NCBI GenBank assembly: GCA_015499995.1
Contig: JADNRV010000065.1
Span: 208,863 to 272,862, forward strand
DNA from: Flammula alnicola
Taxonomy: Eukaryota; Basidiomycota; Agaricomycetes; Agaricales; Strophariaceae
Direction: 5' to 3'
DNA length: 64,000 bases
Shown: in pieces, positions 42,648 through 63,958 of the stretch
Layout: every line of letters begins with the position of its first letter
Position numbering within the stretch: the first letter of the stretch is position 1
Made by a program: the position numbers and the translations under genes
Notes under the pieces: generated by a model
Seen by the model: only the letters and a program-made list of their open reading frames with translations
The model's database searches: none
Told to the model about the DNA's origin: nothing

Positions 42648-42712
42648 GTTTTTTTTTCTATATGCATCTATTTCAATATGTAAATTTTTTTGGTTGTATC
42701 CTTGTACTATAG

Positions 42713-45042
42713 CTGGCTTGAGGCTTGTGTTACGGCTCTTTCTTGCTTAGGACAATTTTGGATTATTATCTGGCTTCTGATCTGGTGTAATCTGGTGTCT
42801 TTGGTTTCTGCTGCTCGAACAGAAAGTCCTTTCCCGGATATTTCTTTCAGTGCTGTCAGTGGAATTATCGAATCAAAATTTGGCTCTAAAATCTCTCTGG
42901 CAACTGTCTTGGCTCTTTTATTCACACTTACAGAGAATACGGACTTGTTAAACCTTCATTCTCGACAGCAACATCCAGAACACCCAGGTGAAAACAAAAC
43001 TCGGACAACTGGATGGATGATTGCACTGGCTAAAGCATTGATTGAACAGTTAGGAGATAAAAAAAGCTCTTTACTTCATGATGGAGAAGGAGAAGATTTA
43101 TCTTCAAAAGAAGAGGCTAGACTTATTGCAACAAAGCTGGATAATATGGCTATCAATTTAAATTTGACACCATATGATGATGATGATGCTTATGCAGGAA
43201 AGCTCCTTTCTGTTTCTCTTAAAGACATTCAACCAGTTCATATGATATGTCCTGCTTCACTGGTTTGTGGAACTGCAACATGTAAATCCAGATCACTAGT
43301 ACAAGCCACACGACAGCGTGATATACCATTGGTGACTTTGATCAAAGGCCAAAAGATTTACAAGAATGCTTCTGTCTTGACAGGAAAATGTCCAGACTGT
43401 GAAACATTTTATTCTGCAGATCACGAGCGTTTTTTCTATGATCTTAATGGAACAAAACAACCGAAGCAAGTTTACCTTAACTCAGCTAAATACCTAAAAA
43501 TTGGCAGTAATCTATGGGTAGATCGATTGTTTTCAAGCTCTGTGATCAATGCAATGTACAGCTTTCATGCTTCTGCTTCTGCATATTCACAATATTGGAA
43601 TATTACCTTTGGAACAAAGTCTACAACTGTTTCCCATGCTCATATCTGGCAGGCCTTTGTACAAGATTCTTTGCGCACAATTGCAGCAGAGTCTAAGATT
43701 GATATCGAGCTCAATGATCCTCTCAATATTAAAGAAGTTACTACTCAGGCTTTTGAACTGTTGGGAGAACAGGGAATTATCAGAGCAGCAGATCACCATG
43801 CATGCAGTGAATGTACTCAGCCATACAAGAAGACAAGTGATGCTGTTTTAAATGATCCTGCAGCTGTAGTTGGAGTTGATGAAAATCAAGATGTACCACC
43901 ATTGGCAGAAACTGCTGAAGTTATGGATCAACCAGCTTCTCCTATATCTGTGGATAGTTCTAATGATGCCATGAATGTTGACAAAAATATTACCATGGTT
44001 GTACTTGATGGAGTTGTTATGGGACCAACGGTAAATTTTCTAGATATAATTTTGTATGCAATGGATACTAACTTGGTATTTATAGCATTGCGCAATTGAC
44101 AATTGTGTAAATGATCTTTCAAATTCTCGAGGTGGATCTTTATGTAATGTGCATCATTTACAACTTGGGTCTCGGTGTCTTGTGCGTGATTGTACAAATA
44201 ACAGAGTTAGAGATACCTCTGCATGTCAAGCTCATCAGGGACAGTGGCGAAAATATACGAAATATCGCACTTGTCAGACTCAATCAGGAGTACGCAGAAT
44301 GCTGCAAAGACCTGGAGAAAGTCAACCTTGGAATCCACAAAGGAGAGGACCAAACCCACAGCGTCATGATGATGATGAAGAAGAGCCTCCACTATCTTCC
44401 AACTATTTCAGTCCTGCCCGATATTACTGTGTGGAAACCATTTGTGCACCATGCGGTGTTGTGATTGCATGGACAAAATTTGCAAGAGCAGAGTCTACAA
44501 CAAATATTCTGAACTTTTTGGAGTCTGTTTATCAAACTGAAGAGTCCCGTCCTGACTATATTTGTATTGACAAAGGATGTAAAGTCTTCCAAACTGCTGT
44601 TAGAAATGGAAGTTGGGATAGAATATGGAAGCACACTTCAAGGTTTATTGTTGATGCATATCATTATATCAATCATCGTGTGCAGGATTATCTTTGCCGG
44701 AAATATTGTAATCCATCACCAGGCGATGGCTCTGCTCCAAACCTTGTTATAATTGAATATGACAACAATGGACGTCCATATGCCAAGCGAGCATTTAATA
44801 CACAAGTGTGTGAGCAATTGAACGCCTGGCTCGCTGGATTTGAATCAATTCTGAAGCGCATGACACCTGGCAATTTTAACTGGTTTTTGCATGCAATGCT
44901 TTTTTACCACACAAAACATGTGATCACTCAACAAAAACAAAAGGCGAAATCTCAAAATGATAGTGATGATGACGATGATGACTTGGGATTGGATGAAGAC
45001 ATTTCCGATAACTCTGCATCTGAGTCTGAAGATTCTGATTAA
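42713..45042 (+). CDS. KDZ transposase with CxC5/CxC6-type cysteine clusters
   Basis: Two exons, 42713-44030 and 44086-45042 (55-base intron with consensus ends). The N-terminal region is followed by a cysteine cluster (CPASLVCGTATCKSRSL then GKCPDCETFYSADHE) of the CxC5 type. After the intron comes HCAIDNCVNDL and CLVRDCTNNR (CxC6 type), then YICIDKGCKVFQT, VDAYHYINHR and QVCEQLNAWLAGFE, where conserved acidic residues of the KDZ fold are expected. The C-terminus is acidic (DDDDDDLGLDED). KDZ transposases cut and paste DNA with an RNase H-like core. No ATG lies near the 5' end of the open frame (the first Met is ~100 codons in), so the true start is either upstream through splicing from the preceding gene or missing. 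Confidence 0.8.
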
Positions 45043-45184: not shown

Positions 45185-46279
45185 AATAGCACTTAAAGTA
45201 GGGTTACATAGGTACACAATATATACATCACACAAATCTTTCCAAAATGGAATTTTTTATTCTAAATTCCACAGGAATCCACAGGAATCCACAGGAATTT
45301 AGGACATCTTTTGAAAATAACACCTTTTATAGCAACTTTCAGGAATTCCTGTGAATTCCGGTCTGCATTCCTCCGGAATCCTGTCCATTCCTCCGGATTC
45401 CGGTCCATTCCTCCGGAATCCGGTCATTCCGGGAGGAATCAGTGGAGGAATGAAAAGTATTGCGATTTTTATGAGGATATTGGAGTCGGTTGCAACGTCT
45501 GCAAAACAACTCAAGGAGATGACTCCAGCTCGGGTAGTAAAAAAGGCGAAGGTAGGTTTCGAAATATGAGTTATAGACCCCCGTTGACAAGTTTACTTAG
45601 GTCATTACCTCCAGTGCTCTCACTCTCCTTGGCGAATATAGCTACAGCAATAATTGGGCAAAGAAAGCCATCGGCTTGTACCTCTACAGCATTGGCTCAC
45701 AGCGTCAGCCACTATCTGTCATGTCCCATGTTGGTCTCTCTGAAAGCTACAATACGATTACCGGAAAGGAATACCATGCAAAGAAGGACGACAAAGAAGA
45801 TGAAGATGGCACTGCTCCAGCATCGTCAAGAGGCTCAAGGAAAGGAGGAAGTCTCCGGCGGCTCTCAGCATCGATGCTCGACATGGCTCGCGTTGTCGCC
45901 TCAAAAGGGCTCTTTGCAACATCCTACGACAATATTAATATGGTGTTCCGAGCTGCTGAACAAATCGTTGGGCGGACAGGTACGTTTCTTGATATTTGGG
46001 AAGAAACTAAAGTAACTGAAATTAAAAACAGATGCTCAAGAGAATGGAACGTGCTCTACCATCTGGCCGCTCTTCAAGGCTGCCCTTTGTGATATGCACA
46101 CGAAGGACTTGGAGGACTCATTTGACAAGGCACCCCTGCTATCTATATTCGACATTCTTTTGACCTCGAAAGAATCAGAATGTTTGAGGAAAAATCTCAT
46201 CCATTGCATCTTGCGGATCATCATTACCCATGGTGGTGAAATGTTCAAGAAGTTTCATGCCGATCACCTAATGCTGACA

Positions 46280-46388
46280 GTGATGTGCACATGCCTACTC
46301 TAGTAGAGTATTTAGGCATGTGCACATCACACTCTGAGCAGAGCACTCTAATGTGCACACGAATGCCTAATCATGTGCACATTAGAGT
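46280..46388. repeat. Twin hairpins at the truncated end of the DUF6589-like gene
   Basis: First hairpin: 17-base perfect arms gtgatgtgcacatgcct (46280-46296) and 46314-46330, the loop itself palindromic (ctctagtagag). Second: 15-base perfect arms actctaatgtgcaca (46345-46359) and 46374-46388. Both share the tgtgcaca core. They mark the point where coding similarity ends and may be the terminus of an element extending right. Confidence 0.85.
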
Positions 46389-46668
46389 CAGCTCAGCACA
46401 TGCTCAAGGCCATACAAGCCGTGCCGGCATATCCAAGGCATGCCTGCCGGCCTCTTGGTGCGCTTGTGGCGTGCATCCACACGCGCCTCCACACGCGCCT
46501 TGTGCGCGCTCAGGTGCGCCCATTCCCATATTTGTCAGCCCCCGCCGTTCCTCCAAGGGGCAACCGCCACATACCATTCTGGGTAATGTACTTAGTAGCT
46601 AGATCCAGTAAATCATTAAACCGCGTAATAAGCATCAATAAAATGTAATGCTTGTATTTCTAAGGATA

Positions 46669-49600
46669 TTACAGTGCATCTACAGATATAGACCCGAGGG
46701 GTGCATTATGCTCAGCCTCATCTTGAAGCGGTGACACCTCGTCATCCTCACCATCGTCCTCCTCCCTCATGCTACTACTACGTGGAACAATATCACAGCG
46801 ACCTTCAGACTGTACATACTTTGCGACATTGCACCAGAGCATGCCACAGTGATGCGCCATCATCAAGAATTGCTCCTGCTGGTTGAGCGCAAATGCGACC
46901 CGTCCTGCGTCGAACAGTGGGTCCGCCGGCACATTTGGAAGACACCAGCTAGCCAGATCCGCGGCGCGCTTAGACCAAGTTGCGGCACGATGGAGGAGGA
47001 ACTGTTGAACGCGCCGCATCTCCTCCTGCAGCAGTTCGACTTCCTCCCTCCATCGGTCTTGCCGTGCTCTGCTCTTACACCACTCCACGCGGAGAACTAA
47101 AGGTGTAACATGTAGATATCAGTATAATCTGTCAGAAATTTCGAAGCATACACGCACTATCGTGGAGCGCCCCATCGCCGTGCATCTGCTCGCCAACCCC
47201 CACATGCCTCCATATCCACGACAACATTCTATGACCCTCCGATGCGACCTCCTTCTCCGTCCCCCCTGGCTTCCTCCTTTGCTTCTTCCTCGCCTTCTCT
47301 GAGTCGTCATCTTCAGCCGCTGCTGCATGGATGTCACCCTTCTTCAGTTCTGGAACAAGGTTCTCCCACCCCTCAACCCCTAATCGAGGCGCCAATCCAT
47401 CCAGCGCAGATCGCGCTGCACAGTATCGGTTTGCCGCAGCGTTGACCTTGGCCTGACACCTCACGACAATGGTATTCGCTCGAGTATTTGCCACTTGGCC
47501 ACGCTGAAACCGCGCCTTGTCGATGAGGACATAGGATCGAAGGCGGAGACCCTCGCGAAGATCGTCAAGCGCATCGGAGGCCTGTGCTTGGCGCAATTTC
47601 CATTCAATACTGAGCAGGCGCATGTCGCATGGAGTCGTGGAGGTCAGGGAGGAGGGAAGTCTGAGGAGCACCTCATGCGCGGGGATTTCCAGTTGTTCAT
47701 CCATAGCGTCATGGGCACGAGCACGAACCATTCGTAGGCTGGGAATATACATGTGTTGAACCTCAATCCAGGCCTCGATCTTCCTCTTGAGTGTTGACAT
47801 ACGAAGCTTGAGGTTTGTCTTCTGTTTATCGGTAGCAGTAGTTGAGCTCAGACTTGCAGCGGTCATCGCCGTCTGACGTCTAGGATGTATGTTTAAATTG
47901 ATATCTTATTGAATAACATAACTAGAGACTTACTGGCTCTCCTCAAGGTCAATGCCCATAGAAATAAGGTGGCTGGCCGATATTTCCTCGTGCATTACAT
48001 ATGCGACACCCAATGATGCGTCTGCATGTTCCTCGTCAGCAAGCTGAAGACGAACTGCATTTTGAGACAGCGCTAGACAGGCTCGTTATAAATAAAAGAA
48101 TAAACCATACATTAGTCTGGTAACACACCTTTAACACGAGTTTCCATTGGATTAGGAAGGCTGGTATCCTTCTCCCAGGCAGATAGCTCCACCTCCCATA
48201 GCGAAACATCCTCAGTGGGGAGCCTTTCTGTCAGCGCCTTGTGCAGCTCCCTATGCTCGACCATCTCAGGTACCGCATCTGTAATTCGCTTCAGGAGTAT
48301 CGTCGCTAGAAATTTAAATGATCAGTTTCATTAAAATGTGCATAGAGGTGAATAACGCACCGAGCTTCACCGTCTTCTTCCAGTTCCAGTCTCCGAAATG
48401 GTCATCGAGAGTATCACGGCGGGCCCCCGGCCCCATTTCCCGAGTGCTTGAAGCAATGGGATTGATGTGAGCCCATCCACGTTCAACGCCTTCGCCATCT
48501 GTTCGCCCAACTTTGGGATTGAAATTGAACGAATACTTGGTCTGGCATTTCAGGACATGAGCGGGAAGATGGAATTTGGGGACCAGGAATCGATACGAGG
48601 TAGAGCTGTCGTGATTAACGCGCATCCAGGATGGGTAGATTTTGAGGCGTTCCCAGAGGTTGATGCTCCATTGGCAGGCGATATCATATGATATCACGAC
48701 CTCGACCAGCTCCTCGAGCTCCACGCTTGAGCAAAAGAGATAATCCATATTCACGTAGCTAAAAATAGATGCATTAGCAAACTTGTTCTATAAATATAAA
48801 TGTCGTAGATCACACACCGTTCGCCCTTCTGGAGATCTCCAACAGAGCTTGGGCGCTTCATATCGTGCCGAGTACAATCCACAGTCCCAGCCCCAGATGC
48901 TGCCAGCCCATCCTTTCCCCTCTCTTTGTTGACAGCATTGTGATTGGAGCAAGTGCTGGGCTATTGTAGCGTTCATCAGAGGCGGCGACCATGAAAGAAA
49001 TAAATCGGTACTCACCTCCTGTATTATGAGGGTTCCAAAAGTGTTTAAAAACTCCTTGAATTCACTCTCATGGACAAAGTATGCCCATCCATTGCTCAAG
49101 CTAGGATCCGAGGCATTATTGCTCACCATCTTCCGCTTCAATCGGAAGTTGGCATCCATTCCAAGGAAAAGAGTGTAGAGAAATCTAGAATGAGACATCA
49201 GTGACAATAGATAATGAGATTCAATCATTCACACCTTTTTTCGGGGGGTGCATCCCTCCAATCGCTCTCCAGGTTTACTCCGGGATGAGGACATGCGGGA
49301 CAGAGCACGGCACATTCGCGTTGGCGCGTACCAGCTGCCCCAGAAGACTCGTGTCCACGTCCAGACCGCTTGAGCATCTTGATATTCCGGTACTGCCGGA
49401 CCATTCTCATGAACGCACGGTAGCGATCCTAATCAAGGCAGTTAGATAGATACTAAAGCGGCCCACTGGAATGAAATAGTATCTCACGGGAATTGTGGTC
49501 GTCCCTATATTGTCTGAAAGTCTTGCCAAAGACTGATAATACTCGAACGCAGATGCCTTGGATTCAAAGGATAGAATTTGAAAGGTATTGAGAACCCGCA

Positions 49601-50515
49601 GAGTGGCGGCTGAGCGAGGAAATCCGACGGTGGATGGGTACCAGCCAAAGCGAAGCAGTTGGACGAAATGGGGTGGAGGGGTACCACAGCCACAGTAGTT
49701 CAGCGTAACTTCATGTATGCCATTCGTCTCTATGACAGTAAATGTGTTGTGGGAAGAGCGGACAGGGAAGTGGCAGGATTCGCCCAGCGGATGGCCGAGC
49801 TGGAAGCAGAAGCCTAGTGACTTGAAGCTAGTCTTTGCGAAGTACCCTTCTTCCCGCCAGACCTGTTACCACAAGGTAAGACATCCACATATGACATCAA
49901 GCAGGCAAACTGACCTCGATCCGGTGCAAGCCATTCTGAAAGTGCCTGCGAAGAAGACAGCCAGAGCAGTACAGCTCACGGCCATCACAGTCAATGCACC
50001 GGTAAACCTGCGCGCCAGTATCACCACAGTCACGGCAGGTAGGCGTTAAAGTGCCACGGCTCTCTAATCGTAGGAACTCGGCGAGAAAGACTTCGCGATC
50101 GAGAAGCCACTGCCGCATAGGAAAGTCCTGCCAGAACATTATTAAATTTTGTAATAGACAACAAGACTGTACATACCCCTTTGCGCTGTTTGCGAGTAGA
50201 TGATTTTGGAATGCTGGTTTCTTCCAGAAACTCTGCGTATGCTGGATCGATTGCATCGTCGACATTTGCCTCCCAAATTGGGGCAGAGGATGGGTAAATT
50301 GGGTCATATGGGTCATCCAATGCCGCGAAGTCGCCTGCATCAGTCAAATCGTCCAGCTCCACTTTACGGGAACGGTACCCCATTTGCCCGCTAGGCAGCA
50401 TGCTGAAGGATGTCGAAAGGATAGGAGTGGATGCAGGCACAGGGGGATCAGGCTCGTCCGCGATGGAAATCATGCAGCCATTGGGTGAGCGTTGGCGGCG
50501 CCGTCGTTTCGACAT
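46669..50515 (-). CDS. KDZ transposase with CxC zinc cluster (intact, 11 exons)
   Basis: Exons (minus): 50515-50177, 50127-49915, 49862-49488, 49428-49235, 49184-49016, 48960-48818, 48758-48361, 48305-48129, 48072-47934, 47879-47158 and 47096-46669; the sum is exactly 1099 codons. Order of motifs: a basic start MSKRRRRQRSPNG; a cysteine cluster CRDCGDTGAQVYRCIDCDGR, CSGC and HRIE (CxC domain); CAVLCPACPHPG; the KDZ signature MDANFRLKRK with the first catalytic Asp; DLQKGERYVNMDYLF; SYDIACQW with the second Asp; FLVPKFHLPAHV; VGRTDGEGVERGWA with the catalytic Glu; and MGPGARRDTLDDHFGDWNW. The C-terminal third is coiled-coil-like with an LRVEWCKSRARQDRW segment. No stop or frame break was found. 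It would excise and reinsert the surrounding element. The start at 50515 gives a basic N-terminus; an upstream Met at 50584 is less likely. Confidence 0.9.
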
Positions 50516-51491
50516 GTCAAGATAGTATTCTGTAACAGTATGAACAAATTCTACATAGGCAGTACATGGAATATTATGCACCATGAGCTCACTGTGGGTT
50601 CTGTGGTGGCAAGATCTCCAGATTTCTGCCGGATCGGTTCATTTCAATGCCATACGCAACATTTGCTGTTGAATTTTCCTGGTGTCGCGGCCCACGTTCG
50701 TGCGAAATTACATTACCCTCCCCTCGTTTGACCTTTTGCAATGCAGAAGTGCCGCAAAGATCGTGTGATTGCATGCAAAGCGCTTATTCAACCATTATCC
50801 GTGTTTGCTCCATGCGTGCATGTATTCAAACCTGGCGACCCGATCATTATGTACGGATGCAGTAGATTAAACTGTAAAACCTTGTTCCATCATTGGTGCC
50901 TGATCGTCGTGATGGCACAGACGTCAGTTGTGGGTCCATGTCCACCGACACGCTCACTCGACGCAGGGTAGCTAGCTCATAGCTGTATGCAGTTCAACAG
51001 AACCACAGAAATTTCTTAGGAGATACTACTTGTGGGCATGTCTCAAGTGCTCTGAATACATACATATGCGCGATGCGTGAATTTCAAACAATGAATTTCA
51101 ACGCATCTGCGTGACTAATACATATGCGCGATGCGCGAATTTCCAACAATGAATTTCAACGCATCTGCGAGACTTCAGTATTGCAAAAAGCTTCTGGATT
51201 TTTTTTTCCAGGTGCACGTTTGCTCATGAATACATTACCCCCCCCCTGTTCGACCTTTTGAGATGCGGCAAAAGGAATTCCAGCTCGGTCAGGAATATAT
51301 TACCCGCCCCCTCATTCGACTTTTTGGGACGCGGTGCCGGCAAAACTCAGCCGTGCCCTTATTCAACCGCTATCTGCGTTGCTCGATGCATGCGGGAACA
51401 TGCGGCGGCGGCCAGCATATTCTGAATGTGGCGATGCTCATGATAACAGAGCTGCATTGAGGAAATACGCCTAATACGCTAATACATTTGA
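50516..51491. other. Spacer between transposase and TET/JBP genes, with direct repeats
   Basis: Contains two 58-base tandem units (51061-51118, 51119-51176; starting tacatatgcgcgatgcg), each holding gaatttc and acgcatctgcg. A diverged ~110-base direct repeat (50700-50825 and 51290-51400) shares cattaccc.cccctc, ttcgac(c/t)tttt and cttattcaacc. No gene. It holds the promoter of the transposase gene; the repeats may be binding sites or element ends. Confidence 0.5.
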
Positions 51492-53244
51492 CTAGGTTGT
51501 ACGGAAAGTATTTCTACCAAAAATAAAGGCACGATCATCGGGGAGACTGGCTGCAGTCGAAAAAAGTTGCAGCGCAGCCTCGGTCCGATCTTCTAACTTA
51601 CCGTCGATGAGTTTCTTCTGCGCCCTACCTGCCGCGGTCAATTTGAGAGTGGTTCCAGTTTGGAACCCATAGTCTACCCATCGAAACAAACCGCCTGAGC
51701 AGTATTGCGTCATGGACATCCGCTGCACTCCCTCTCCAACGACCGGGGTGTTCCCATGCCGAAGCACACTGGACGGGATCAAGATAGTGGCACCAGGGGG
51801 GAACTCGATCACCAGGCCGAGGTCAAAAAGGACCATATGACCGCCGAGAGTTGGATCGAAATTGCCAAGTGCAGTGATGGCACAGAGGCCGTAGGCGACA
51901 TTGTTGTAATCCGTGTGATCAACCGTTATCGTTCCAGGCCCAAGGTTGAACGTACAAGCTGGGAAGATGCTGCATGTAGGGAAGTTGGGGCGCAGATGTG
52001 GGGAGTGGTCATAGAGCCGCGAGAGATAGGATCGATATACGTTGTAGAGCTTCGGCGCATAGAATGCAAATGCACCTGTAGAGTTAGAATGGCAGTTAGC
52101 AATTATAGGCCCGAAGATTCTCAAATGAAACTTACCACTCTGGAAGCCGGCTATGCGCTTGATGTCGTTGTGCTGGCAGAGAGATTGAATGATGGCTTTA
52201 AGTCTCCCAGGAATGCCCAGATTACCCGGTTGCTGGAATAGAGTTGTTAGTAGAGAGAATATTAAATATCGTATGAATAGATGCACCACAGAGCCACCAC
52301 CAAATGATACTCCGGTCGGAATCGCGTAATAATTGCCTCGACGGTGGTTGAAAGGGTCCTTGCTCGCCGACGGTGCAAAAGCTCCATTCCGCTTGCCTTC
52401 GACGCGCGCCTGGGTCATAGCAGATGCGGCCTTCCTCACAGAAGGCATCCACGTCGGATCTTTGGGCCGGGCCACGAGGAAAACCAGGCCGTGACCGTCC
52501 ATGTCAGTGTACGTCTGGGATGACCTGAAAATAAATTAGTCTGATATCCGTAAGAAATAGAATTGAATACGCACTCTCCGTCCCACGGAACACGCTCCAT
52601 GTTCAACGCCATGAGCTCATCCAGCGTCCAAGTCCTAGGCTGGCGTTCAGCTTCCACCTTCACAGCGCGACGCCCAATCCAATTACCGGCAGGAAGGTTG
52701 CGAGATTCGAGGGACACCTTCTTTGCAGGGATATCACGATAGCGCGTGAGGGCGTGAGCCTTGGACGGTGAGCAGGGATGGAAACGGTAGGTGCGGCAAG
52801 CTTCCGGCGTGCTTTGGATCGATCCTTGGCACGCGCTTTCTCGATCTTCCCCGGTTGTGCAATGGTGTATGGGCGAGCTGGGATTGGAGCTGATGCAGAG
52901 GCGAGGCGAGCAGATTGTCGAGGGATGGGACTGGATGAGAGTCGACGTTGGGATAAACGCGCAGATTGTCGGTGCGGAAAGGGCGTCCTCAAAGGGTGTA
53001 TCCTCGTTGTCACCCACATCGCGATCAGAGCGAAGTTCGGCGACTTCCAAGGCGTTTCGAAAGAGGGGGGCCATGAGCACTTTGAACGCCGTGCACTTGT
53101 TGAGGCCGATCGAGGATGCGTCACATATTCCAAGGACATAGTCCCCGAATGAAGTCCCACTGCGCGTCTGGACATATCAATTAGAAACCGAGTAAGTGAG
53201 GAGGGCCAAAGGGAACTTACCACACGACGGATTGGAGTTTCCAT
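51492..53244 (-). CDS. TET/JBP-family 2OG-Fe(II) dioxygenase
   Basis: Exons (minus): 53244-53221, 53167-52575, 52524-52290, 52232-52136 and 52075-51492; sum exactly 511 codons (510 aa). The catalytic double-stranded beta-helix is in the last exon: HTD in TITVDHTDYNNVAYGLC supplies the first metal-binding His and Asp; the stretch ALGNFDPTLGGHMVLFDLGL follows; distal His in VLRHGN; and the 2-oxoglutarate-binding Arg in GVQRMSMTQY, then GGLFRWVDYGF. This is the fungal TET/JBP pattern; such enzymes oxidise 5-methylcytosine in DNA. The Ser/Thr/Pro-rich N-terminal ~130 residues look disordered. Both introns inside the 3' half have lengths divisible by three and are open. It is collinear with, and upstream of, the KDZ transposase gene; a link between the two has been described in basidiomycetes. 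Confidence 0.87.
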
Positions 53245-53353
53245 ATTGCAAATGCACTATACACACTAGTGCGGTGTTCGTCGCCAACTGTAAGGGCGTA
53301 TAATCACGTTAGTCAATGCATAAAACACAGAGTAGCAACTGCAAAAACTGCGG

Positions 53354-53552
53354 CCAGGGTGTCTGGGTGGACTCGCCTGCACCGCGGAACGAATGACGGG
53401 GAAACGCCGGCAGGGTGTCTGGGTAGACTGCCGCCCCAGAACGAAAGACGGAACGCAGGTGCACGGGCAGGGTGTCTGGTGGACGCCTGCACGCGGATGA
53501 AATACGAAGCACGGTGCAGGCAGGGTGTCTGGGTGGACTCGCCTGCACCGTG
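53354..53552. repeat. ~56-bp minisatellite, 4 copies
   Basis: Four diverged copies around cagggtgtctgggtggactc at ~53354, 53410, 53467 and 53520, upstream of the TET/JBP start codon. Confidence 0.85.
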
Positions 53553-54595
53553 TACTCACATGAATGGCCCTTGAGTGACGACGTTGGAAAGTTGTGGGGG
53601 GAGGGAATAAAAAAAAGCAAAACGCCCACCTTATACCAGAGATCGAGGGCCCCTAGCGAAAATATGATACCCGCACCTACGGGTCAGGCATCATCCGCGG
53701 GTGCCAAAACCGGTGCGGGCTGGGTTGGGGGTATGGTATTGAGGACGGCATGCGAGGGTGCGTGGGGCACTTGCTGCGCAGATATCGGGTTGGGAGGGGC
53801 GGTCGTTGTGCGTTAACTGGCCAGGGGTGGTCGGTATGCCTTAGGGGGGTGCAGTGCAGCAGAGTGTGCAAGGCGATGGGCGGTATTCGTCCATTGGCGG
53901 TGGTGATGCTGTGCGTACAAGTTAACACTGGAAATCACGAAGAAAATCGTTCGTTGACATACCTGGCGGGCCTCCCATTGCATGGGTCCCCCCTTCTGTA
54001 CTCCAAGTCCCCGTGAATCCGTCATCGTCGAATGAAAACCCCGCCACACCCATGTCTGACGGAGGGGAAGGGCTCACACTGCACATGTCGTCGACGTTGG
54101 AGGTCCACGGCGCGCGTGTTAGTCTGAGCGGTTCAGGTTTGCTGAGTGCGGTACAACGTTGGGAGCCGTGCCGGTTTGAAACCCATGTCGTTCACGCGGG
54201 AGGCTCACATTCCTCTTTTGGTAAATGTGATGATCGCCCCTTTTGGACGATCAAGATTCACATTGACGATCTGCCAAATATAGTAATATGGCCTAGCGCC
54301 TGTGCCTACGGCTCGCATACGGTCGCATATGGGTCGCATATGGTCGCATACGGGTCGCATACGAGTCGGACCACTGTAGATGGTCGCATATCAGTCGCAT
54401 ACACCTCTTATTTTGTCAACCGTGTGCGCTCTGCTGCGTTATATTAAATATACAAGATATACCATAGTTGAGTAATGTACTAGCTACAATTAGATAGTGT
54501 TTGGGAAGCTCAGAGAATCTATTGCATGTCGGTAATAAATAGATCAGTACATGCAACTAAACATATATATTTAACATACTACACTCAGTACCACC
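53553..54595. other. No gene; tcgcata array at 54312-54402
   Basis: GC-rich sequence with no supportable coding exon. 54312-54402 holds seven copies of tcgcata in (g)ggtcgcata(t/c)-type units of 10-12 bases. It lies between the TET/JBP gene and the start of the next host gene. Confidence 0.5.
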
Positions 54596-54773
54596 ATGAC
54601 CAAGAAATCTGGCAAGGATGGTTTGACCAAGCATCAACGTTATTATCAACGGTGAGCAGTGATATATTTGATTATATCACTTCTCTAGATATTCACTGTA
54701 AATACAGGCATCGAGATACAGTAAACGGGAAGAACGCAAAGCGCAATAAGGAGAGACGGGTCAAACGGTGCGG
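54596..54773 (+). pseudogene. 5' end of a host gene cut by the gypsy insertion
   Basis: Exon 1, 54596-54651, reads MTKKSGKDGLTKHQRYYQ. An intron, 54652-54707, has consensus ends. Exon 2 (RHRDTVNGKNAKRNKERRVK) runs into the gypsy LTR at 54774. The basic Y..RHRDxVNxKxxxR pattern is seen at the start of several uncharacterised agaricomycete proteins. Beyond the element, sequence resumes at 63963 and the window ends 38 bases later, so the rest is not visible. Confidence 0.5.
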
Positions 54774-55798
54774 TGTGGAGGAGATGGATAGCGCGCTCGT
54801 AGAAACAGCGGGCAAGTCCGAATTCCCACGTGATGCCGATCAAGCCGTGCACACTACCGCGCGACCATCGATTTGAATACCCCGCGTAGCATACCCTTTT
54901 CTCCCCATTTCAAACACTTCATACACTCATTACATGATCCTTTTTCATCTCCGAAAACCCCCGTACTCTCACCTCTCTTCGTTACTCCACAGACACCGTA
55001 TTTCACACGCAATGGCCGTGAGAACGCGCCTCGGCAAGCCCCGTTTTGCGCTCAAGGTGTACCGCGGTCTGCCTCGACGAAAGAACAACTTCAAGTACGA
55101 TCTACACCGATGGAAGGATGGGAAACCAAGCCAAGAGGAACCATACGGCTGGTAGGAGGTCCTATTTGCAAATTCTATTCCGTTTTATTCCATTTTATCT
55201 TGTTTCATCTTGATTCTCGATCACTTCCGCATCTCTTTCTCTTTTCAAATAGCCGACACCGAGTGCAACGAGACGACACGCTGTACGCAGGAGGACGCCC
55301 CGCCCTAACGTGCGACGAGCAGCGGACACGGTCTGGTCCACCGTGGAAGATTGTATGTCCCTTGAGCAAGGATGTACAGTTCACTCGCGCCCGCACCAAG
55401 CCTCAATCTTGCCTCCTATCCTGCGTGCGGCCGAAATATCGTTGCACAAGGTCGAAGACCCTTTTTCTTTTTCAAATGGACAATCTAGCACATGCGTAGT
55501 ATATTTGATTTGATTTCTTGGGCCTGGCGACGCAAGAGTACGCGTGCGCCAGGAAAATCTCTATATACCCGCGTTTGTAAACTTAGGAGTCCTTAGTCAA
55601 TCTACCCCCACTTTGATTCGGAAAACACTACGAGGAGCACGAGCTATTGAGCAAGAGCATCGAGCAGAGCGCGCCGTGACATTCGCTATCTACACAACTT
55701 CTCAAATACCCCGTACTTAGGCGCCCATCAGCGCCGCTCTCTCTTCTCTTTTCGACGACCTCAATCCAACCTACCTGGAAAAGATCAGCTCTTCCACA
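54774..55798 (+). repeat. gypsy 5' LTR
   Basis: 1025 bp, TG...CA ends. Contains a plausible start region around 55560 (ctatatacccgcg). The short open frames inside, repeated in the other LTR, are not genes. Confidence 0.93.
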
Positions 55799-55935
55799 GT
55801 AGCTATCGAGACTGGATCAAAGGTTTTCCGTCGAAAACAACCACTGCTGAGTCCCTGAATTTCGATTTTTTCCCACTTTCCATTCTGTCTACACTTCTCT
55901 CCCAACTTCCCTTCTTCCCTGTCGAAGCTTACAAC

Positions 55936-58356
55936 ATGGCGACCCCGCCGCAGTTGTTCACGCAGCTGAAGCCGATGCCGATTCCTCGGACATTAAGCGC
56001 ACCTTTATTCGATGGGAAATATGTCAATGACTTCTTAGCTATTTTAGAGCGACATGGGAATTCCGCGGGGCTGCTCACTTCCGAGCTCCCAAAATACATT
56101 GTCCAATACTGCACTGACGAAGTTAAACAGGTCATCCGGTTTTGCGATGAGGTCGAGGGTGCTGACTGGGACAAGGCGAAGCAGCTCCTCGTTGACTTAT
56201 ACGGGTCTAATGACGAACCGGCAAAGGCGACACTCGAAACCCTCAGGCTTTTCGTCAAGGAACACGCGAAGGGTAAAGAATTTGGCAGCCGAGCTGACGT
56301 TGATATCTATCATAGGAGCTATCTCACGATTGCCGCGCAACTTAAGTCAAAGACGTTGATTGACGAGAACGAAATGAAGCTCAAGTTCTTTGCGGGTCTT
56401 CCACGAAGAACCCGAGCGTTTGTAACCTCTCGCCTTCCTCCCGCCAACTTGGCTACCACCTCACCACCTCAAATCAAGACGGTGATCGAAATTATATGCC
56501 GCCAGTTCAACCCGAACAGCATCGAGTCCTACAATGTGGAATCAGATGCTGACGACTCTGACGACGATACGCCCAGCGCGGCCCCATTGACAAAGCCTTC
56601 ATTACTGCCTCTCACTAGTGTCCTCGAGTCAGCTAGACCCAAGAGCAGCAATATCAAGACCGACATCGATCTTCTCACCCAGCAGCTGCAGCAGCTCTCA
56701 ATCAGCCAAGCTCAGATGCAGCAGATGTTTCAGACCGCGATGAGCGCAGGATCCTTCTCTCGTCCTTCTAACAGTACGAACCCCGCTGATAAAACTTGTT
56801 TCATTTGCGGACAGGTTGGAACGCACCGGTTGCACCCTCGTTTCTGCCCGGAAACAGCCAAGCTCATAGCGGAATCGCTCATCAAGTTTGACGCCGCCCG
56901 CGCTCGATACACACTCATGGACGGAGCAGACCTTCCGTTGATACCATTCACGCCGGGCGGTGTCGCTCAATACCTGCGCGAGCATCGAAGTGACTTTCCG
57001 CGGCGCGAACCACCACCTCACACCTTGACAGCGAGCGCGTCTCCCGCGACGCTAATGATGGGCGACTATCCGGCGTTGTGCGGTGACGTGTACGCCATCG
57101 CATCAAACCAAGATGAGTTCGATTTCAGCGACTCTTACCCTGTGACACGCACTGGCAAAGATACTGCTCCTAGACATGACCCAACACGACGACCGCCTGC
57201 GAGGAAACAGCCCGAGCGGCCGAATACGCCTGCAAGTGCACCGATGCCTGCACCTCGCCAGCCATCAGGACCGGCGCCTACGACATCTCAACATATTCCC
57301 AACGAAGCGCGTGTTCCCGGCACTAATGGGTCCGCACCGCCGCCGCCCATCAATACGCGTGAAGGGTGGAAGGAGTCGCTCCCTCGCAACAACAAGGACG
57401 TCGAAATGAAAGATGAACCAAAGAGTAAAGCCCCTCAGTACCACTACACGTCGGACGTTCAGGAGAAGATCTCCATGCAAGACATCCAGGATCTCATTCT
57501 GCAGACTCAGGTAACCCTGACATTGCGTGACATCTTAGGCATATCCCCGGGACTCCAAAAACGAATGGCGGATGCTACGAAGACTCGACGGGAATATTTG
57601 ACAAAGTACGGCGAGTACGATCTCTACACGGCGCAAGCCGAAGAAGAGTTCGCGAAGACCAGCGTGGGAGCGCAAGTAAATTCGGCGAGTTCTCTCCAGT
57701 TTGACGAATTGAATGATCCTTCCATGCTTGATTCATTCATGCTCAGGTACTCGAATGCAGTCAGCTTCAGGCCTACAAAGAAGTACGCGATGACTACAGG
57801 CATTTTTACTGCTGATCTTGCGGGAATGTCCATCCGTCTCATGGTCGATTGCGGCTCTGAGCTCAACATTTTCCCTGAGCGCCTTCTCGCCCAGACCAAC
57901 TTACCTCTTGACTACGAGGGCACGCGTTGGTCCCTGAAGGGCGTCAACGGTGGTCCTGTGGGTCTGAGAGGGGTATGCAGAGACGTACCGATATCGATCG
58001 GCGGCCACAGATTTGACCATCATTTCTTTGTTACGCGCGAGGACATGGACTCACAAGATTGCATTTTAGGACAGCCTTGGATTCAGTGGTTCGCCGCGCG
58101 TATCGATTACTCAAGAATCGGTCACATGAAGATTATGCTATGGAAGGATGGCGATCGAAGCAACAACCCTACGATCTCGGTACAGCTGACACGACCCAAT
58201 GACCCAAGGAATGTCGATGCAACAGGACCACTCCCAGGGGCCTCACGACCAGTAACCGAAGAATCGGAGACAGCTCATCAGCAGCACTCGCACCACCAAC
58301 GAGCATATATCGAGGAGGTCGACGATGATGATGCGTACGCCCGATATTTTCATTAG
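55936..58356 (+). CDS. gypsy Gag with zinc-finger and aspartic protease
   Basis: 806 codons. The Gag part begins MATPPQLFTQLKPMPIPRTL. A Gln-rich helix precedes a cysteine/histidine finger at about residues 285-305 (CFICGQVGTHRLHPRFC), a variant of the retroviral knuckle. A disordered Pro-rich region follows (~390-500). Near residue 637, IRLMVDCGSELNIFPE is a retropepsin-like active site with DCGS instead of DTG/DSG, as in other fungal gypsy elements. The frame stops with TAG at 58354-58356. The next frame, shifted by -1, is open from 58332, so a short overlap exists. It makes the particle shell and processes the polyprotein. Confidence 0.88.
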   Translation: MATPPQLFTQLKPMPIPRTLSAPLFDGKYVNDFLAILERHGNSAGLLTSELPKYIVQYCTDEVKQVIRFCDEVEGADWDKAKQLLVDLYGSNDEPAKATLETLRLFVKEHAKGKEFGSRADVDIYHRSYLTIAAQLKSKTLIDENEMKLKFFAGLPRRTRAFVTSRLPPANLATTSPPQIKTVIEIICRQFNPNSIESYNVESDADDSDDDTPSAAPLTKPSLLPLTSVLESARPKSSNIKTDIDLLTQQLQQLSISQAQMQQMFQTAMSAGSFSRPSNSTNPADKTCFICGQVGTHRLHPRFCPETAKLIAESLIKFDAARARYTLMDGADLPLIPFTPGGVAQYLREHRSDFPRREPPPHTLTASASPATLMMGDYPALCGDVYAIASNQDEFDFSDSYPVTRTGKDTAPRHDPTRRPPARKQPERPNTPASAPMPAPRQPSGPAPTTSQHIPNEARVPGTNGSAPPPPINTREGWKESLPRNNKDVEMKDEPKSKAPQYHYTSDVQEKISMQDIQDLILQTQVTLTLRDILGISPGLQKRMADATKTRREYLTKYGEYDLYTAQAEEEFAKTSVGAQVNSASSLQFDELNDPSMLDSFMLRYSNAVSFRPTKKYAMTTGIFTADLAGMSIRLMVDCGSELNIFPERLLAQTNLPLDYEGTRWSLKGVNGGPVGLRGVCRDVPISIGGHRFDHHFFVTREDMDSQDCILGQPWIQWFAARIDYSRIGHMKIMLWKDGDRSNNPTISVQLTRPNDPRNVDATGPLPGASRPVTEESETAHQQHSHHQRAYIEEVDDDDAYARYFH

Positions 58357-58394
58357 CGCAGGACACGACCACGCGGCCGCCAACTCTCTTCAAC

Positions 58395-61300
58395 GTGTCT
58401 TGCGCAACTATAGGCCGATCACTCATGGGTCTTCTCGGAGATCCTGAGTTTCGTGAGTTTGATAATTTTCTCTATTCTTTTGACCCTCCAGATTCGTTTG
58501 ATTATTTATTGAGACAAGTAAGTCTCGCATCTAATAGTTTAAGACCGCTAACTACGTCGTGGACGCTCCGAGCATTATCTAGCTCACCATATACCCATTC
58601 GCGCACTGTATCCCTCACTGCGAAACGCAAATACAAACCCGTGGACCGCAAAGTACGGCCAGTACCTACGTACATGCCAAACCCCGTGGCTCTCGAGTTC
58701 AAACCTATCCCCTTACCGCCGATATCACAACTCCCATCAAAACCTCCGCATTTTGCTTCGCTGGAACCTACGGAAAGGATGACAGCTGAGCGTCTCTCTC
58801 TTCTCTTAAACACAATACCTGAAGGATTTCTTTCTCCAGAGGAGGTAAACCTGCTCGCGTTCGTGGTGGCGAGGCGCGAGAAAGCGTTCGCGTTCACGTT
58901 TGCTGAGAAAGGAACATTCCGTCAAGAATTTTATCCAGATTATGAAATACCAACTATCGAACATACGCCGTGGCAGCGTCCTCCAATCCGAGCGCCTAAA
59001 GCCCTAGAGGAGGTTATACGCCAAGAAATCCTGGAGCAGGAGGCTGCGGGACGCTTTGAGGCGACATCATCAAGCTATAGATCGGCCCTCTTTGCCGTGG
59101 CAAAGAAAACGAACAAAGTACGCCTGGTCCTTGACCTTCAGGAACTAAACTCCGTCACGATCAGAGACGCGGCGCTACCTCCGTCGGTGGACGATTTTGC
59201 TGAAGCCTTTATCGGGCGAGCAATCTATGGATGTGTCGATCTATTCGCCGGATATGACGCACGCATATTAGCTGAGTCCTCACGTCCTCTCACGGCATTT
59301 CATTCACTTTGTGGACCCAAACAACAGGCAACTCTACCAATGGGTGCTACAAATGCTGGAGCGGAATTCCAGCGATGTGTCAACCACGCTTTACAAGAAG
59401 ATATCGATGTCAACGCGAAGGCATTCATGGATGATGGAGGAATCATGGGACCGCACACGACGTACGACGACGCGCCCATTGACGACAACCCCAACATCCG
59501 ACAATTTGTATTCGAGTACGCTACAACGTTGGATCGGATTCTCGCGCGATTCATTGCAGCAGGAATCACGGCGTCGGGACTCAAAACCACGCTCGCAACG
59601 CCGCGCCTTCGTATTGTTGGGTCTGTAGTATCGATCGAGGGATGGCACCTTGAGAAAGGGCTCATCTCGAAGATAACGAAATGGCCTTCCTGCGAGAACG
59701 TGTCTCAGATCCGAGGTTTCCTAGGAGTAATGGGATGCGGAAGAAAATGGATCAAGAACTTTGCTTTAATCGCTAAGCCTTTGACATCTCTATTGCGAGT
59801 CACTGATGCCGATTTCTCATTCACGCAGGAGGCGCAGGATGCGATGGATTCTCTCAAGCAACTTGCCACGACAGCGCCGGTGCTCATCAAGATCGACTAC
59901 GACAAAGCCAAACTCATCACTCAACTGCCGCGGGCGTCTGACGAAGGACTTGTAACTGTCGCCGTCGACGCAGCAGCCTTATATGGTGCGGGGTGGGTGG
60001 TATATCAACATCTCGACAATCAACGCCGACCTGCCGTTTATGGGTCATGCACCTACAATGAGCGCGAAACGCGATACTCGCAACCAAAAGCAGAGCTCTA
60101 TGGAGTGTTTCGCGCCTTCAAGCACCTCAGACATCGCATTTGGGGCATCCGATTTTGTCTAGAACATGACGCTAAGTTCCTTCGTGAGATGATCGTGACA
60201 CCTGATTTACCAAATGCTCCTATGACCAGGTGGATTGCGTATCTGCAGCTTTTTGATTTCGAAATGCACCATGTGAAAGCCGAAAAACACCAAGCTCCGG
60301 ATGGCTTATCTCGAAGGCCGAAATCGGACCAAGATTCCGAAGATGAGGAGGAGTCGGAGGAATATCTTGATAGATTTATCGGGAATTTCTTAGCGTCGGA
60401 TAAAGAGTTGCCACAGGGGTTCTGGCATAAAGATTCATATAAACTCTCAGCAAGGCAAGTTAAATCTGTTCTTCGAACCATACAACTTGCTCGCAGTGCT
60501 TTCTCTATGTCATCAGCTCCGTATACCCGACTATTGCAACCACAGGCCCAATATAATATTCACGCCAATGCCTCTCGACCGCCGGCGCTTAACTTCTACA
60601 ACCTATTCACCACCGGAATCTTGGTCGACTCGGAGCCGCACTCGGGCGCTAGGCATCCGCAGTTCCCAATTCGCCCAACTCGGTTCGATCCTTCCAACTG
60701 GACTCGCAATAATCTGGCCGACTACACCCTTCTCCGGGTGACTGACACCATGACGTACATGGGCCGTGAATTCTTCGACCGCAAAACGCCAATCGAGCAA
60801 GAAGTTGAATACCGTTTGGGTGATGAGGTCATCAACCTTTCTGTCACCTCATATCACTATACGTACGCGTCGCGGCTGCGAGCAGGTGAGTACCCTCCAG
60901 CTATAGTCGATCATTCAGTGGTTGGATATTGTGCGGTCGAGGAGAGGACTGATAGCCGAGCCAACTATGAAATACTCACTGCGCCAGAGCATCGCGAGGC
61001 TATTGCATGTATTGGTCATAAGTTTGGAACCACAGACTTGGACGCACCTGAGATGTGGAAGGACCTCCGAGCCTTCTTTACCGATGGATCACTTCCTGCT
61101 CTGTGTCTGACGGACACGAAAGAGAAGGAAAGGTTCCTTAAGCGTGCTAACCGTTTTCTTTTCTTCGAGGAACGTTTATGGCTCAAGCCCAGCAACAAGA
61201 GCTCGTCCCTGCCCCGCCTCGTTATCGAAGATAACCAACGACGCCAAGAATTACTCGTAAAAGTACACGATGAGTGTGGCCACCGAGGACGAGACCCCAC

Positions 61301-62755
61301 TTACGTCAAACTTGCCGAGCGCGTATACTGGCCGAACATGTATAACGACTGCGCGTATTTCGTGAGATCGTGCGTACCCTGTCAATTCGAGTCAAATGCT
61401 AAACCTATCATTCCATATAACCCATCCTGGATGTCATCAATCCTCCGTCATTGGCACATGGACTGCATTCACATGCCTCTCGGCGTCGGCGGAAAGCAAT
61501 ACCTCATCCAAGCAACTTGTTCAGCATCGAAATGGGACGAAGCCGAAGCTATACGTAAGGCTAATGCCGACACCATCGCGAAGTTCATTTATAAGTTGGT
61601 GTGTCGTTTCTCTTGTATTCCCTACATCACGGTCGATGGCGGCTCTGAGTTCAAAGGAGTCGCTGAGGAGGTGTTCCGCCAATATGGCATTGTCGTTATT
61701 GTGTCTACAGCTTATCACCCCGAGGGAATGGCGTGTCAGAGCGCGCAGCACATCAGACCCTCGTCCATGGCCTCATGAAAGCGTGCCATAAGGATAAGTC
61801 CAAATGGCCGCTCTATGTTGACGCGATTTTGTTCTCGATTCGCGTTACCACTAACCGAGTCACAGGGTATCCTCCTTATTACCTGGTCTATGGTATATTC
61901 CCGGTATTCGCGTTCGACATCGAGGACGGAACTTGGCAAACCTTGGATTGGGATACCGTCCGCACCACCGCTGACTTAATCGCCCTTCGCGCCCGACAAA
62001 TCGCTCGCCGAGATGAAGATGCAGAAATCTCTTATGAGCGTGCGCGCTTTTCACGTCAGCAAGCCATCGATAACTTCAATAAGCGTTACGGTAAAAATTT
62101 CTCCTTTCATGGGTTTGATGTTGGGATGTGGGTGCTTCGCCACGAGACGTGGTTGGACAATCAATTTGGCAAAAAGGACTTTTGGCGCTGGTCGGGGCCG
62201 TACATTATTCACGAGAAGCGCGATAATAACACCTATGTGTTGCGCGAGCTCAACGGCACGGTTATGCGAGGCCATGTTACTGCTCACCGCCTCAAACTTT
62301 TCTTTTTTAGGTCAGAAAATCACCTTATGAAGACCGTCACCAACACACGCCTGTACTATGATATTCAGCACTTCGAGAAGCACTACATCCAGACACTTCG
62401 TTCTTCGAGCGGCCTTCACGCAGTACGCCACCCCGACATCGACTACTACCACTACAACAAGGAGCCGCACGGCGACGACGAGCTTCCGTTTCCAGACTAC
62501 GCATCAGTGGGCGCGCGCTTTCCGCTCCGCATATTATATTTCCCTGGTATGGCTTCCAAGCCTGTCAACCTCGCCCTTGCACACCGACCGCACTGGGGCG
62601 GTTCTATCCGTGATGACCCCGCCTTTGAATCTTTCGAAAAATGGTCCAAGAAACTCGCGATCATGGCCACGGATGAGACGTCAATCACCGAGAAGATCTT
62701 TTCGCCTGCTAACGCGAACCCGAACCGCTATGCCTTGGGGTTTATTCGAACGTAA
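58395..62755 (+). pseudogene. gypsy Pol (RT, RNase H, integrase) with one frameshift
   Basis: The first part runs to 61778: RT with VRLVLDLQELNSV (~59120) and the catalytic FMDD box (AFMDDGG, ~59425); RNase H with AVDAAALYGAGW (~59955) and the E in KAELYG; a His/Cys zinc finger (HDECGHRG ... CVPC, ~61270-61380); integrase first Asp in WHMDCIH (~61455), second Asp in TVDGGSEF (~61630). After YHPEG at ~61725 one base is missing. The integrase goes on in the next frame from ~61733 with SERAAHQTL-like sequence containing the catalytic Glu, to the stop at 62755. The first ATG in the Pol frame is 58425, but fusion to Gag by -1 shift is possible. Confidence 0.88.
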
Positions 62756-62923
62756 TGTCCCCTTCTTTTTCTGTTGATTTTGCCATCACACTCCTTTCAC
62801 CGCGCCGTTTCTATGCCTTACTTTGACTCTCTTATTTTGTTCTTGTTGTTCTCTCACTTACTACCCATCACACTCCTTCTTTTATCTTCCATCTCATCAC
62901 TTTGGATGTTGGGGACAACATCT

Positions 62924-62932
62924 AAGGGGGGG
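62924..62932 (+). promoter_or_regulatory. gypsy polypurine tract
   Basis: aaggggggg followed by cac and the 3' LTR start; the expected second-strand primer site. Confidence 0.8.
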
Positions 62933-62935
62933 CAC

Positions 62936-63958
62936 TGTGGAGGAGATGGATAGCGCGCTCGTAGAAACAGCGGGCAAGTCCGAATTCCCACGTGATGCCG
63001 ATCAAGCCGTGCACACTACCGCGCGACCATCGATTTGAATACCCCGTAGCATACCCTTTTCTCCCCATTTCAAACACTTCATACACTCATTACATGATCC
63101 TTTTTCATCTCCGAAAACCCCCGTACTCTCACCTCTCTTCGTTACTCCACAGACACCGTATTTCACACGCAATGGCCGTGAGAACGCGCCTCGGCAAGCC
63201 CCGTTTTGCGCTCAAGGTGTACCGCGGTCTGCCTCGACGAAAGAACAACTTCAAGTACGATCTACACCGATGGAAGGATGGGAAACCAAGCCAAGAGGAA
63301 CCATACGGCTGGTAGGAGGTCCTATTTGCAAATTCTATTCCGTTTTATTCCGTTTTATCTTGTTTCATCTTGATTCTCGATCACTTCCGCATCTCTTTCT
63401 CTTTTCAAATAGCCGACACCGAGTGCAACGAGACGACACGCTGTACGCAGGAGGACGCCCCGCCCTAACGTGCGACGAGCAGCGGACACGGTCTGGTCCA
63501 CCGTGGAAGATTGTATGTCCCTTGAGCAAGGATGTACAGTTCACTCGCGCCCGCACCAAGCCTCAATCTTGCCTCCTATCCTGCGTGCGGCCGAAATATC
63601 GTTGCACAAGGTCGAAGACCCTTTTTCTTTTTCAAATGGACAATCTAGCACATGCGTAGTATATTTGATTTGATTTCTTGGGCCTGGCGACGCAAGAGTA
63701 CGCGTGCGCCAGGAAAATCTCTATATACCCGCGTTTGTAAACTTAGGAGTCCTTAGTCAATCTACCCCCACTTTGATTCGGAAAACACTACGAGGAGCAC
63801 GAGCTATTGAGCAAGAGCATCGAGCAGAGCGCGCCGTGACATTCGCTATCTACACAACTTCTCAAATACCCCGTACTTAGGCGCCCATCAGCGCCGCTCT
63901 CTCTTCTCTTTTCGACGACCTCAATCCAACCTACCTGGAAAAGATCAGCTCTTCCACA
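62936..63958 (+). repeat. gypsy 3' LTR
   Basis: 1023 bp, nearly identical to 54774-55798. Confidence 0.93.

What the first reader, a model, noticed from the sequence alone, without database searches (positions are those of the whole stretch)
46669..53244. Collinear TET/JBP dioxygenase and intact KDZ transposase
Two complete-looking, intron-rich genes on the same strand, 976 bases apart: a 510-aa TET/JBP-type dioxygenase with HxD, distal H and R all present, and a 1098-aa KDZ transposase with CxC cluster and D, D, E motifs. Linkage of TET/JBP genes to KDZ transposons has been reported in basidiomycetes, so the class is known. An intact, possibly live pair would let one study whether the enzyme protects or re-activates the element through 5-methylcytosine oxidation.
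Basis: partly seen in the sequence, partly recalled or inferred. Interest (0 to 1): 0.9.

Follow-up and report, generated by a model that had tools for sequence, protein, structure and literature searches.

The report
Mushroom transposon carrying divergent TET enzyme
The two genes belong to one multi-copy jumping element of a mushroom (very probably Flammula alnicola), which carries its own transposase and a distant relative of the TET enzymes that edit DNA methylation; elements of this general kind are known, but this branch of TET-like enzyme does not fit the types described in the one detailed paper that could be read.

Summary
On the minus strand lie a spliced 1098-aa KDZ transposase (46669-50515) and, 976 bases away, a 510/511-aa TET/JBP-like dioxygenase (51492-53244). 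The genome (74 Mb, very probably Flammula alnicola) has eight more contigs with 99-100% identical stretches. Both genes lie inside one element, about 13.6 kb without a nested LTR retrotransposon: 9 left and 5 right ends were found, and 3 of 5 right ends pair with a left end by an exact 7-bp duplication. Four copies of TGTGCACA stand mirror-symmetrically, within 1 bp, at each end.

The dioxygenase is not the CcTet-like (AG) type reported for Kyakuja transposons. By sequence it finds no solved TET, yet its predicted fold matches CcTet, NgTET1 and TET2 best. 64 of 64 aligned relatives keep HxD; 63 have Asn and one Asp where CcTet has Gly. The genome also holds 26 loci over Pfam's Tet_JBP cut-off (five read: CcTet-type); 16 have KDZ within 10 kb, all convergent. 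Of 42 loci of the second clade 17 do, collinear or divergent. Copies decay chiefly by C-to-T at CpG, suggesting methylation. The enzyme's role is inferred. New variant of a known kind.

The parts
46258..46264 (.). left copy of the expected 7-bp target-site duplication of this insertion (TGCCGAT); its right partner was not found
   Evidence: Flank listed; 7-bp length established from three other copies
46265..46392 (+). left terminus of the element (5'-CACCTAATGCTGACAG...) with four copies of the palindrome TGTGCACA starting 20, 55, 88 and 110 bases from the end
   Evidence: Shared start in 9 left ends with different flanks; motif positions, and no other copy in the 64-kb window
46669..50515 (-). 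KDZ transposase gene, 11 exons, 1098 aa, CxC2 cluster plus KDZ domain
   Evidence: Gene model; Pfam; protein P0121 of F. alnicola, 100% over the searched region
50516..51491 (-). 976-bp spacer with a 57-bp tandem direct repeat (51060-51116, 51118-51174)
   Evidence: the repeat finder; a 26-mer from it occurs at 8 places of the genome, this one included
51492..53244 (-). TET/JBP-like dioxygenase gene, 5 exons, 510/511 aa; H371-T-D373, N376, C382, H424, R436
   Evidence: Gene model; Pfam Tet_JBP below cut-off; AlphaFold model pLDDT 95.7 of the 99% identical P0001; best fold matches CcTet, NgTET1, TET2
53349..53550 (.). minisatellite (units of about 56 bp) upstream of the dioxygenase gene; variable between copies
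   Evidence: the repeat finder; variable columns
54596..54773 (+). 5' part of a third element gene (MTKKSGKDG..., two exons by my reading), interrupted in this copy by the retrotransposon; no Pfam family over cut-off
   Evidence: Reading frames of the uninterrupted copy; Pfam scan
54774..63958 (+). nested LTR retrotransposon (LTRs about 54774-55797 and 62936-63958, 1 substitution and 4 gap columns between them; ORF 55651-58356 with DUF4100 and an aspartyl protease); 4-5 bp duplication GCGG(T)
   Evidence: the repeat finder; Pfam; empty site in C663 and C222
63959..64000 (+). first 42 bases of the element's right arm; the arm continues for about 5 kb in other contigs to the terminus ...GCGTCTCTGACTC-3'

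Best explanation
A Kyakuja-like KDZ DNA transposon, about 13.6 kb (about 22.75 kb with a nested retrotransposon), encoding a KDZ transposase, a dioxygenase with a TET/JBP-like fold and up to three further proteins of unknown function. Shown: two common ends, 7-bp target duplications, many near-identical copies, the dioxygenase gene inside the ends, mirror-symmetric arrays of TGTGCACA at both ends. Inferred: the transposase recognises those arrays and moves the element by cut-and-paste; the dioxygenase, whose pocket carries the Asn that a conventional TET uses to hold 5-methylcytosine, oxidises 5mC that the host places on CpG sites of the element and so loosens silencing long enough for transposase expression. 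The dioxygenase belongs to a clade separate from the CcTet-like type found near other KDZ genes of the same genome, so KDZ elements probably took up TET-like enzymes at least twice (replacement of one by the other is the alternative).
Against: Pfam Tet_JBP score is below the curated cut-off and no solved TET is found by sequence, so action on DNA is not established. 25 of 42 loci of this clade have no KDZ match within 10 kb. The other 114 of 120 listed relatives had no partner in the (capped) KDZ list; for Crassisporium the top hits lie on different contigs. The 3' end is TC, not the TG given for two Laccaria Kyakuja families. CpG decay persists in copies, so protection is at best partial; a retrotransposon pair shows it too (161 of 276 transitions at CpG; a host-flank pair 24 of 91). 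Several copies carry disabling changes in one of the two genes. C605 (left end) and C663 (right end) share a duplication but differ at a 41-bp indel and in carrying the retrotransposon: two alleles or an assembly switch.
Confidence: 0.65

Rival explanations
1. The dioxygenase is a passenger: captured and carried by KDZ elements without helping them; long-term conservation reflects use elsewhere or recent capture.
For: In the short term the gene collects frameshifts and replacement changes. 25 of 42 loci of the clade lack a KDZ match within 10 kb.
Against: Catalytic residues near-invariant in 64 relatives; a KDZ match within 10 kb of 17 of 42 loci against about 2.2% expected per random site; even with copies of one element counted once, about seven groups with differing scores remain (groups judged by scores and orientation, not by sequence); the same pairing in four other genera.
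Confidence: 0.2
2. The enzyme works in trans on the whole genome, producing oxidised 5mC as a mark on all repeats, not specifically reviving its own element.
For: Oxidised 5mC is found on retrotransposons as well as around Kyakuja elements in Coprinopsis, and near both classes in Laccaria, as summarised in PMC12730594 and in passages of PMC8889193. CpG decay is not confined to this element.
Against: No targeting data. Does not by itself explain repeated physical linkage to KDZ genes.
Confidence: 0.3
3. The enzyme is a TET-fold oxygenase acting on something other than 5mC (6mA, RNA, thymine or protein).
For: Only distant sequence similarity to TETs; 3 of 120 listed relatives carry a UniRef name beginning 'Prolyl 4-hydroxylase'.
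Against: TET structures hold ranks 1-11, at least 3 Z units above FTO and prolyl hydroxylases. The residue at +5 is the one that contacts 5mC in other TETs and is reported to clash with 6mA (passages of PMC11040006).
Confidence: 0.15
4. The copies are segmental duplications or assembly repeats, not a transposon.
For: Contigs C612, C848, C105 and C605 all end 42 bases past the retrotransposon, typical of assembly breaks in repeats.
Against: Precise common ends, different flanks and three exact 7-bp duplications.
Confidence: 0.03

Closest known systems
TET+ Kyakuja DNA transposons of Agaricomycetes (Kyakuja-1_LB, Kyakuja-2_LB and others; Kojima 2025, PMC12730594)
   Same: KDZ transposase, TET/JBP dioxygenase inside the element, 7-bp target duplications, 5'-CA start, no long terminal inverted repeats
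   Different: 3' end TC instead of TG; the dioxygenase has Asn and Cys where the AG type has Gly/Ser and Asp; whether the transposase sits in the Kyakuja branch was not tested by a tree
CcTet of Coprinopsis cinerea (AG-type TET)
   Different: No sequence match at E<=10 from the single protein or the profile; +5 Asn instead of Gly331, +11 Cys instead of Asp337; the same genome has separate loci of CcTet type
PE-type TET/JBP of Kojima 2025
   Same: Distant, poorly recognised TET-fold enzymes of Agaricales transposons
   Different: PE hallmark is HxE; 64 of 64 here are HxD; no PE sequence was available to compare
Zisupton
   Same: KDZ superfamily
   Different: 8-bp duplications and terminal inverted repeats per PMC12730594; here 7 bp and no long inverted repeats

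Membership tests
KDZ transposon | KDZ transposase domain over curated cut-off | tested here: met
   227.7 bits against 26.6, profile positions 1-217 of 217
KDZ transposon | associated cysteine cluster (CxC2) | tested here: met
   129.4 bits against 27
Kyakuja | 7-bp target-site duplications | tested here: met
   3 of 5 right ends pair exactly with a left end
Kyakuja | 5'-CA..TG-3' termini (as given for two Laccaria families) | tested here: inconclusive
   5' CA met; 3' end is TC, so half of the feature is not met
Kyakuja | no terminal inverted repeats | tested here: met
   15 of the first 30 bases agree between one end and the reverse complement of the other; most of that is a TGTGCACA motif at the same distance from both ends
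Kyakuja | transposase falls in the Kyakuja branch of a KDZ tree | not tested
   No tree built; a Laccaria bicolor KDZ protein (P0153) is 57% identical over the searched region
Zisupton | 8-bp target-site duplications | tested here: not met
   7 bp in three pairs
TET/JBP family | Pfam Tet_JBP over curated cut-off | tested here: not met
   19.1 bits against 34.9; 24 of 64 relatives match at E<=0.01; 5 of 120 listed relatives carry the label
TET/JBP family | double-stranded beta-helix closest to TET structures | tested here: met
   CcTet, NgTET1 and TET2 hold ranks 1-11 by Z; model of P0001, 99% identical
TET/JBP family | HxD, distal H, R | tested here: met
   H 64/64, D 64/64, distal H 63/64, R 60/64
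TET/JBP family | oxidises 5mC or T in DNA | not testable with these tools
   needs protein
AG-type (CcTet-like) TET | Gly/Ser at +5 and Asp at +11 from the first His | tested here: not met
   Asn and Cys; control: 5 of 5 Tet_JBP loci read from this genome (of 26) have Gly/Ser and Asp
AG-type (CcTet-like) TET | sequence match to CcTet | tested here: not met
   none at E<=10; control: one AG-type protein of this genome finds CcTet at 1.2e-24
PE-type TET | HxE motif | tested here: not met
   0 of 64 have E

The most novel reading that the evidence does not exclude
KDZ transposons of mushrooms took up TET-like dioxygenases at least twice: the known CcTet-like type, convergent with KDZ wherever a KDZ gene is near in this genome, and a second clade, seldom labelled by Pfam, with the conventional 5mC-type pocket, collinear or divergent with KDZ. 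The two differ in substrate range (5mC plus 6mA against 5mC only), so two families of elements in one genome fight methylation with different enzymes.
Probability: 0.45. Interest if true: 0.75.

Novelty: new variant of a known kind. Interest (0 to 1): 0.6.

Why it matters
Whether transposon-borne TET enzymes free their elements from methylation is an open question (PMC12730594 states that their function is not experimentally validated). Here is a family with both ends defined, young copies, a CpG-deamination footprint and an enzyme whose pocket makes a clear prediction (5mC, not 6mA), side by side with CcTet-type genes near other KDZ genes of the same genome as a natural comparison. It also suggests that TET-like genes in mushrooms are undercounted: only 5 of 120 listed relatives of this clade carry the Pfam Tet_JBP label.

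Tried and rejected
Rejected: that the dioxygenase lies outside the element (ends and duplications); that it is CcTet-like; that it is PE-type as defined by HxE; Zisupton (7-bp duplications).

Led nowhere or inconclusive: the right end of the window's own copy (its contig ends at 64000; its expected flank is not among the 5 right ends). Functions of the further element genes: no Pfam match over cut-off (weak sub-threshold ones only); the plus-strand gene has 4 relatives at E<=1e-3, two in Flammula, one in Pholiota, one in Mycena. Of 40 'private' substitutions of the window copy 31 lie at 53400-53520, in the minisatellite, and are taken as alignment noise, so the CpG counts were redone without 53330-53560; 4 ambiguous columns were dropped there (first version: 69 of 83 at CpG). 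C215 ends inside the KDZ gene, so its dioxygenase figures are meaningless and were dropped; so were the partial dioxygenase rows of C852, C318 and C557's left piece. Co-amplification of the nested retrotransposon: five contigs carry it at the same site, but only C856 runs on to a right end with its own flank (by coordinates; the inside was not read), and the C605/C663 pair conflicts (output cut; indel length), so it is not claimed. Iyer et al. 2014 (PNAS) and Iyer et al. 2013 (NAR) are not held; what they say of this clade is unknown to me. Table S1 and the figures of PMC12730594 were not seen; of its Discussion only part 1 of 2 was read.
Full report
Setting. The window is G000:C612:208863-272862 and ends at the contig's end; the genome has 74,442,744 bases in 861 contigs. 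It is very probably Flammula alnicola (Strophariaceae): proteins P0001 (99%) and P0121 (100% over the searched region) of that species match, and contig lengths given with its proteins (213917, 62720) equal those of C856 and C205.

The two genes. Eleven exons with GT..AG introns give a 1098-aa KDZ transposase with CxC2 and KDZ domains far above cut-off. Five exons give a 510/511-aa dioxygenase. The spacing of 976 bases is exact. In the window copy a compensating indel pair in exon 2 changes about 75 linker residues. Of five other copies that cover the dioxygenase gene, two have the whole frame open and three carry a frameshift or a stop. KDZ in the eight other copies examined (C848, C105, C605, C856, C852, C318, C557, C215): five open throughout, one with a stop, one with a 601-bp insertion, one truncated (splice sites of the copies were not checked).

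The element. A search with 46000-54800 gave 31 matches, the window itself included; eight other contigs carry long stretches of this arm at 99-100% identity (C557 in two pieces), and C663 (96%) and C222 (100%) carry only its last kilobase. Left ends: 9 in the genome, one of them (C4) decayed, each with a different flank. The right end was found by extending C856 and asking where copies diverge: four other contigs stop matching at the same base, 5 right ends in all. Three right ends carry the same 7 bp as a left end: C848/C156 TGGACGG, C318/C222 ACTCAAT, C605/C663 CTAATGT. The other two (C205, C856) have no partner; C856 has lost its left 233 bp. Length: 8.5 kb left of the retrotransposon plus 5.05 kb right arm. 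TGTGCACA begins 20, 55, 88 and 110 bases from the left end; seen from the right end it begins at 20, 56, 89 and 109, a mirror arrangement that reads like transposase binding sites (inference). Six more copies lie in the right arm 3.4-3.7 kb from its end, just upstream of the plus-strand gene that starts there. The right arm holds the rest of the interrupted small gene, a minus-strand gene (my reading of frames only) and a plus-strand gene matching the annotated 708-aa P0241; none has a Pfam family over cut-off.

Nested retrotransposon. 54774-63958, two LTRs of about 1023 bp with one substitution. C663 and C222 have the uninterrupted site.

Two TET clades in one genome. Over Pfam's Tet_JBP cut-off: 26 loci. 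Five read out have HRD with Gly/Ser at +5 and Asp at +11, and one of them finds CcTet at 1.2e-24: the AG type of PMC12730594 (read: abstract, sections 4, 10, 18, 23, 24 part 1, 34). Loci of the clade studied here: 42, pseudogenes and weak matches included; no locus is in both lists. With 82 KDZ loci (merged from 119 matches; 0 of 14 control genomes), 16 of 26 Tet_JBP loci have a KDZ match within 10 kb, all 16 convergent; 17 of 42 of the other clade do, 10 collinear (8 are copies of this element) and 7 divergent, none convergent. Random expectation is about 2.2% per site. The KDZ domain beside one convergent locus is 33%, beside one divergent locus 39% identical to this element's (one of each). 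Such genome counts are lower bounds. Positions and orientation in those genomes were not seen.

Methylation footprint. Among copies of 46265-54774, without the minisatellite, 96 changes could be polarised by majority; 75 are C>T or G>A and 66 of these lie at CpG: 6.5% of CpG cytosines against 0.6% (CpC), 0.2% (CpT) and 0.1% (CpA); odds ratio 24.6. Deamination of 5mC is the usual cause (established knowledge). Unpolarised pairs show it too: 161 of 276 transitions at CpG for the retrotransposon against its relative on C321, 24 of 35 for the decayed end on C4, 24 of 91 for the host flank and its relative. So the element is treated like other repeats.

Literature. Library searches (listings) showed one paper on complete TET-bearing transposons, PMC12730594; its main text names no Flammula, Gymnopilus, Pholiota or Strophariaceae. 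It gives three types, PU, AG and PE; this clade fits neither AG (residues) nor PE (HxE) as described; PU is rust-specific there and was not compared. Iyer et al. 2014, which reported KDZ/TET linkage, was seen only as a citation. Novelty is therefore claimed against one paper, not against all print.

Verdict. A real, recently active TET-bearing KDZ transposon: known kind, new variant by its enzyme. Structure and linkage are shown; enzyme activity and benefit to the element are inferred.

Noticed in passing
window 42684-45042 +: Two ORFs with CxC5 (9e-29) and CxC6 (2.1e-10) clusters, the kind named after KDZ transposases, beside this element. In Pleurotus ostreatus such CxC5/CxC6 genes were reported not to be linked to KDZ (passages of PMC7641404).
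   Followed up: partly
window 45598-46264 +: The element has inserted in a DUF6589-like gene (sub-threshold Pfam match); a 74% identical relative without the element at that point lies on C261 (L022).
   Followed up: partly
C557:289689-298004 (L016, L018): A copy with a 601-bp insertion in the KDZ gene, with a 3-bp overlap of the two flanks at the site.
   Followed up: no
C222:48732-55654: About 6.9 kb of other DNA inserted in the right arm of one copy.
   Followed up: no
L013 just before 1501 (C856 left break): The truncated left side of the C856 copy abuts CCCTAACCTAACC, a telomere-like run.
   Followed up: no
right arm, 3427-3679 bases from the right end: Six further TGTGCACA copies upstream of the plus-strand gene; possibly autoregulation by the transposase.
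   Followed up: partly
C323:355796, C235:392351, C268:24478, C588:20551, C779:212696: Five Tet_JBP loci with near-equal scores (one read: CcTet-type) and no KDZ match within 10 kb; perhaps another TET-bearing mobile element.
   Followed up: no
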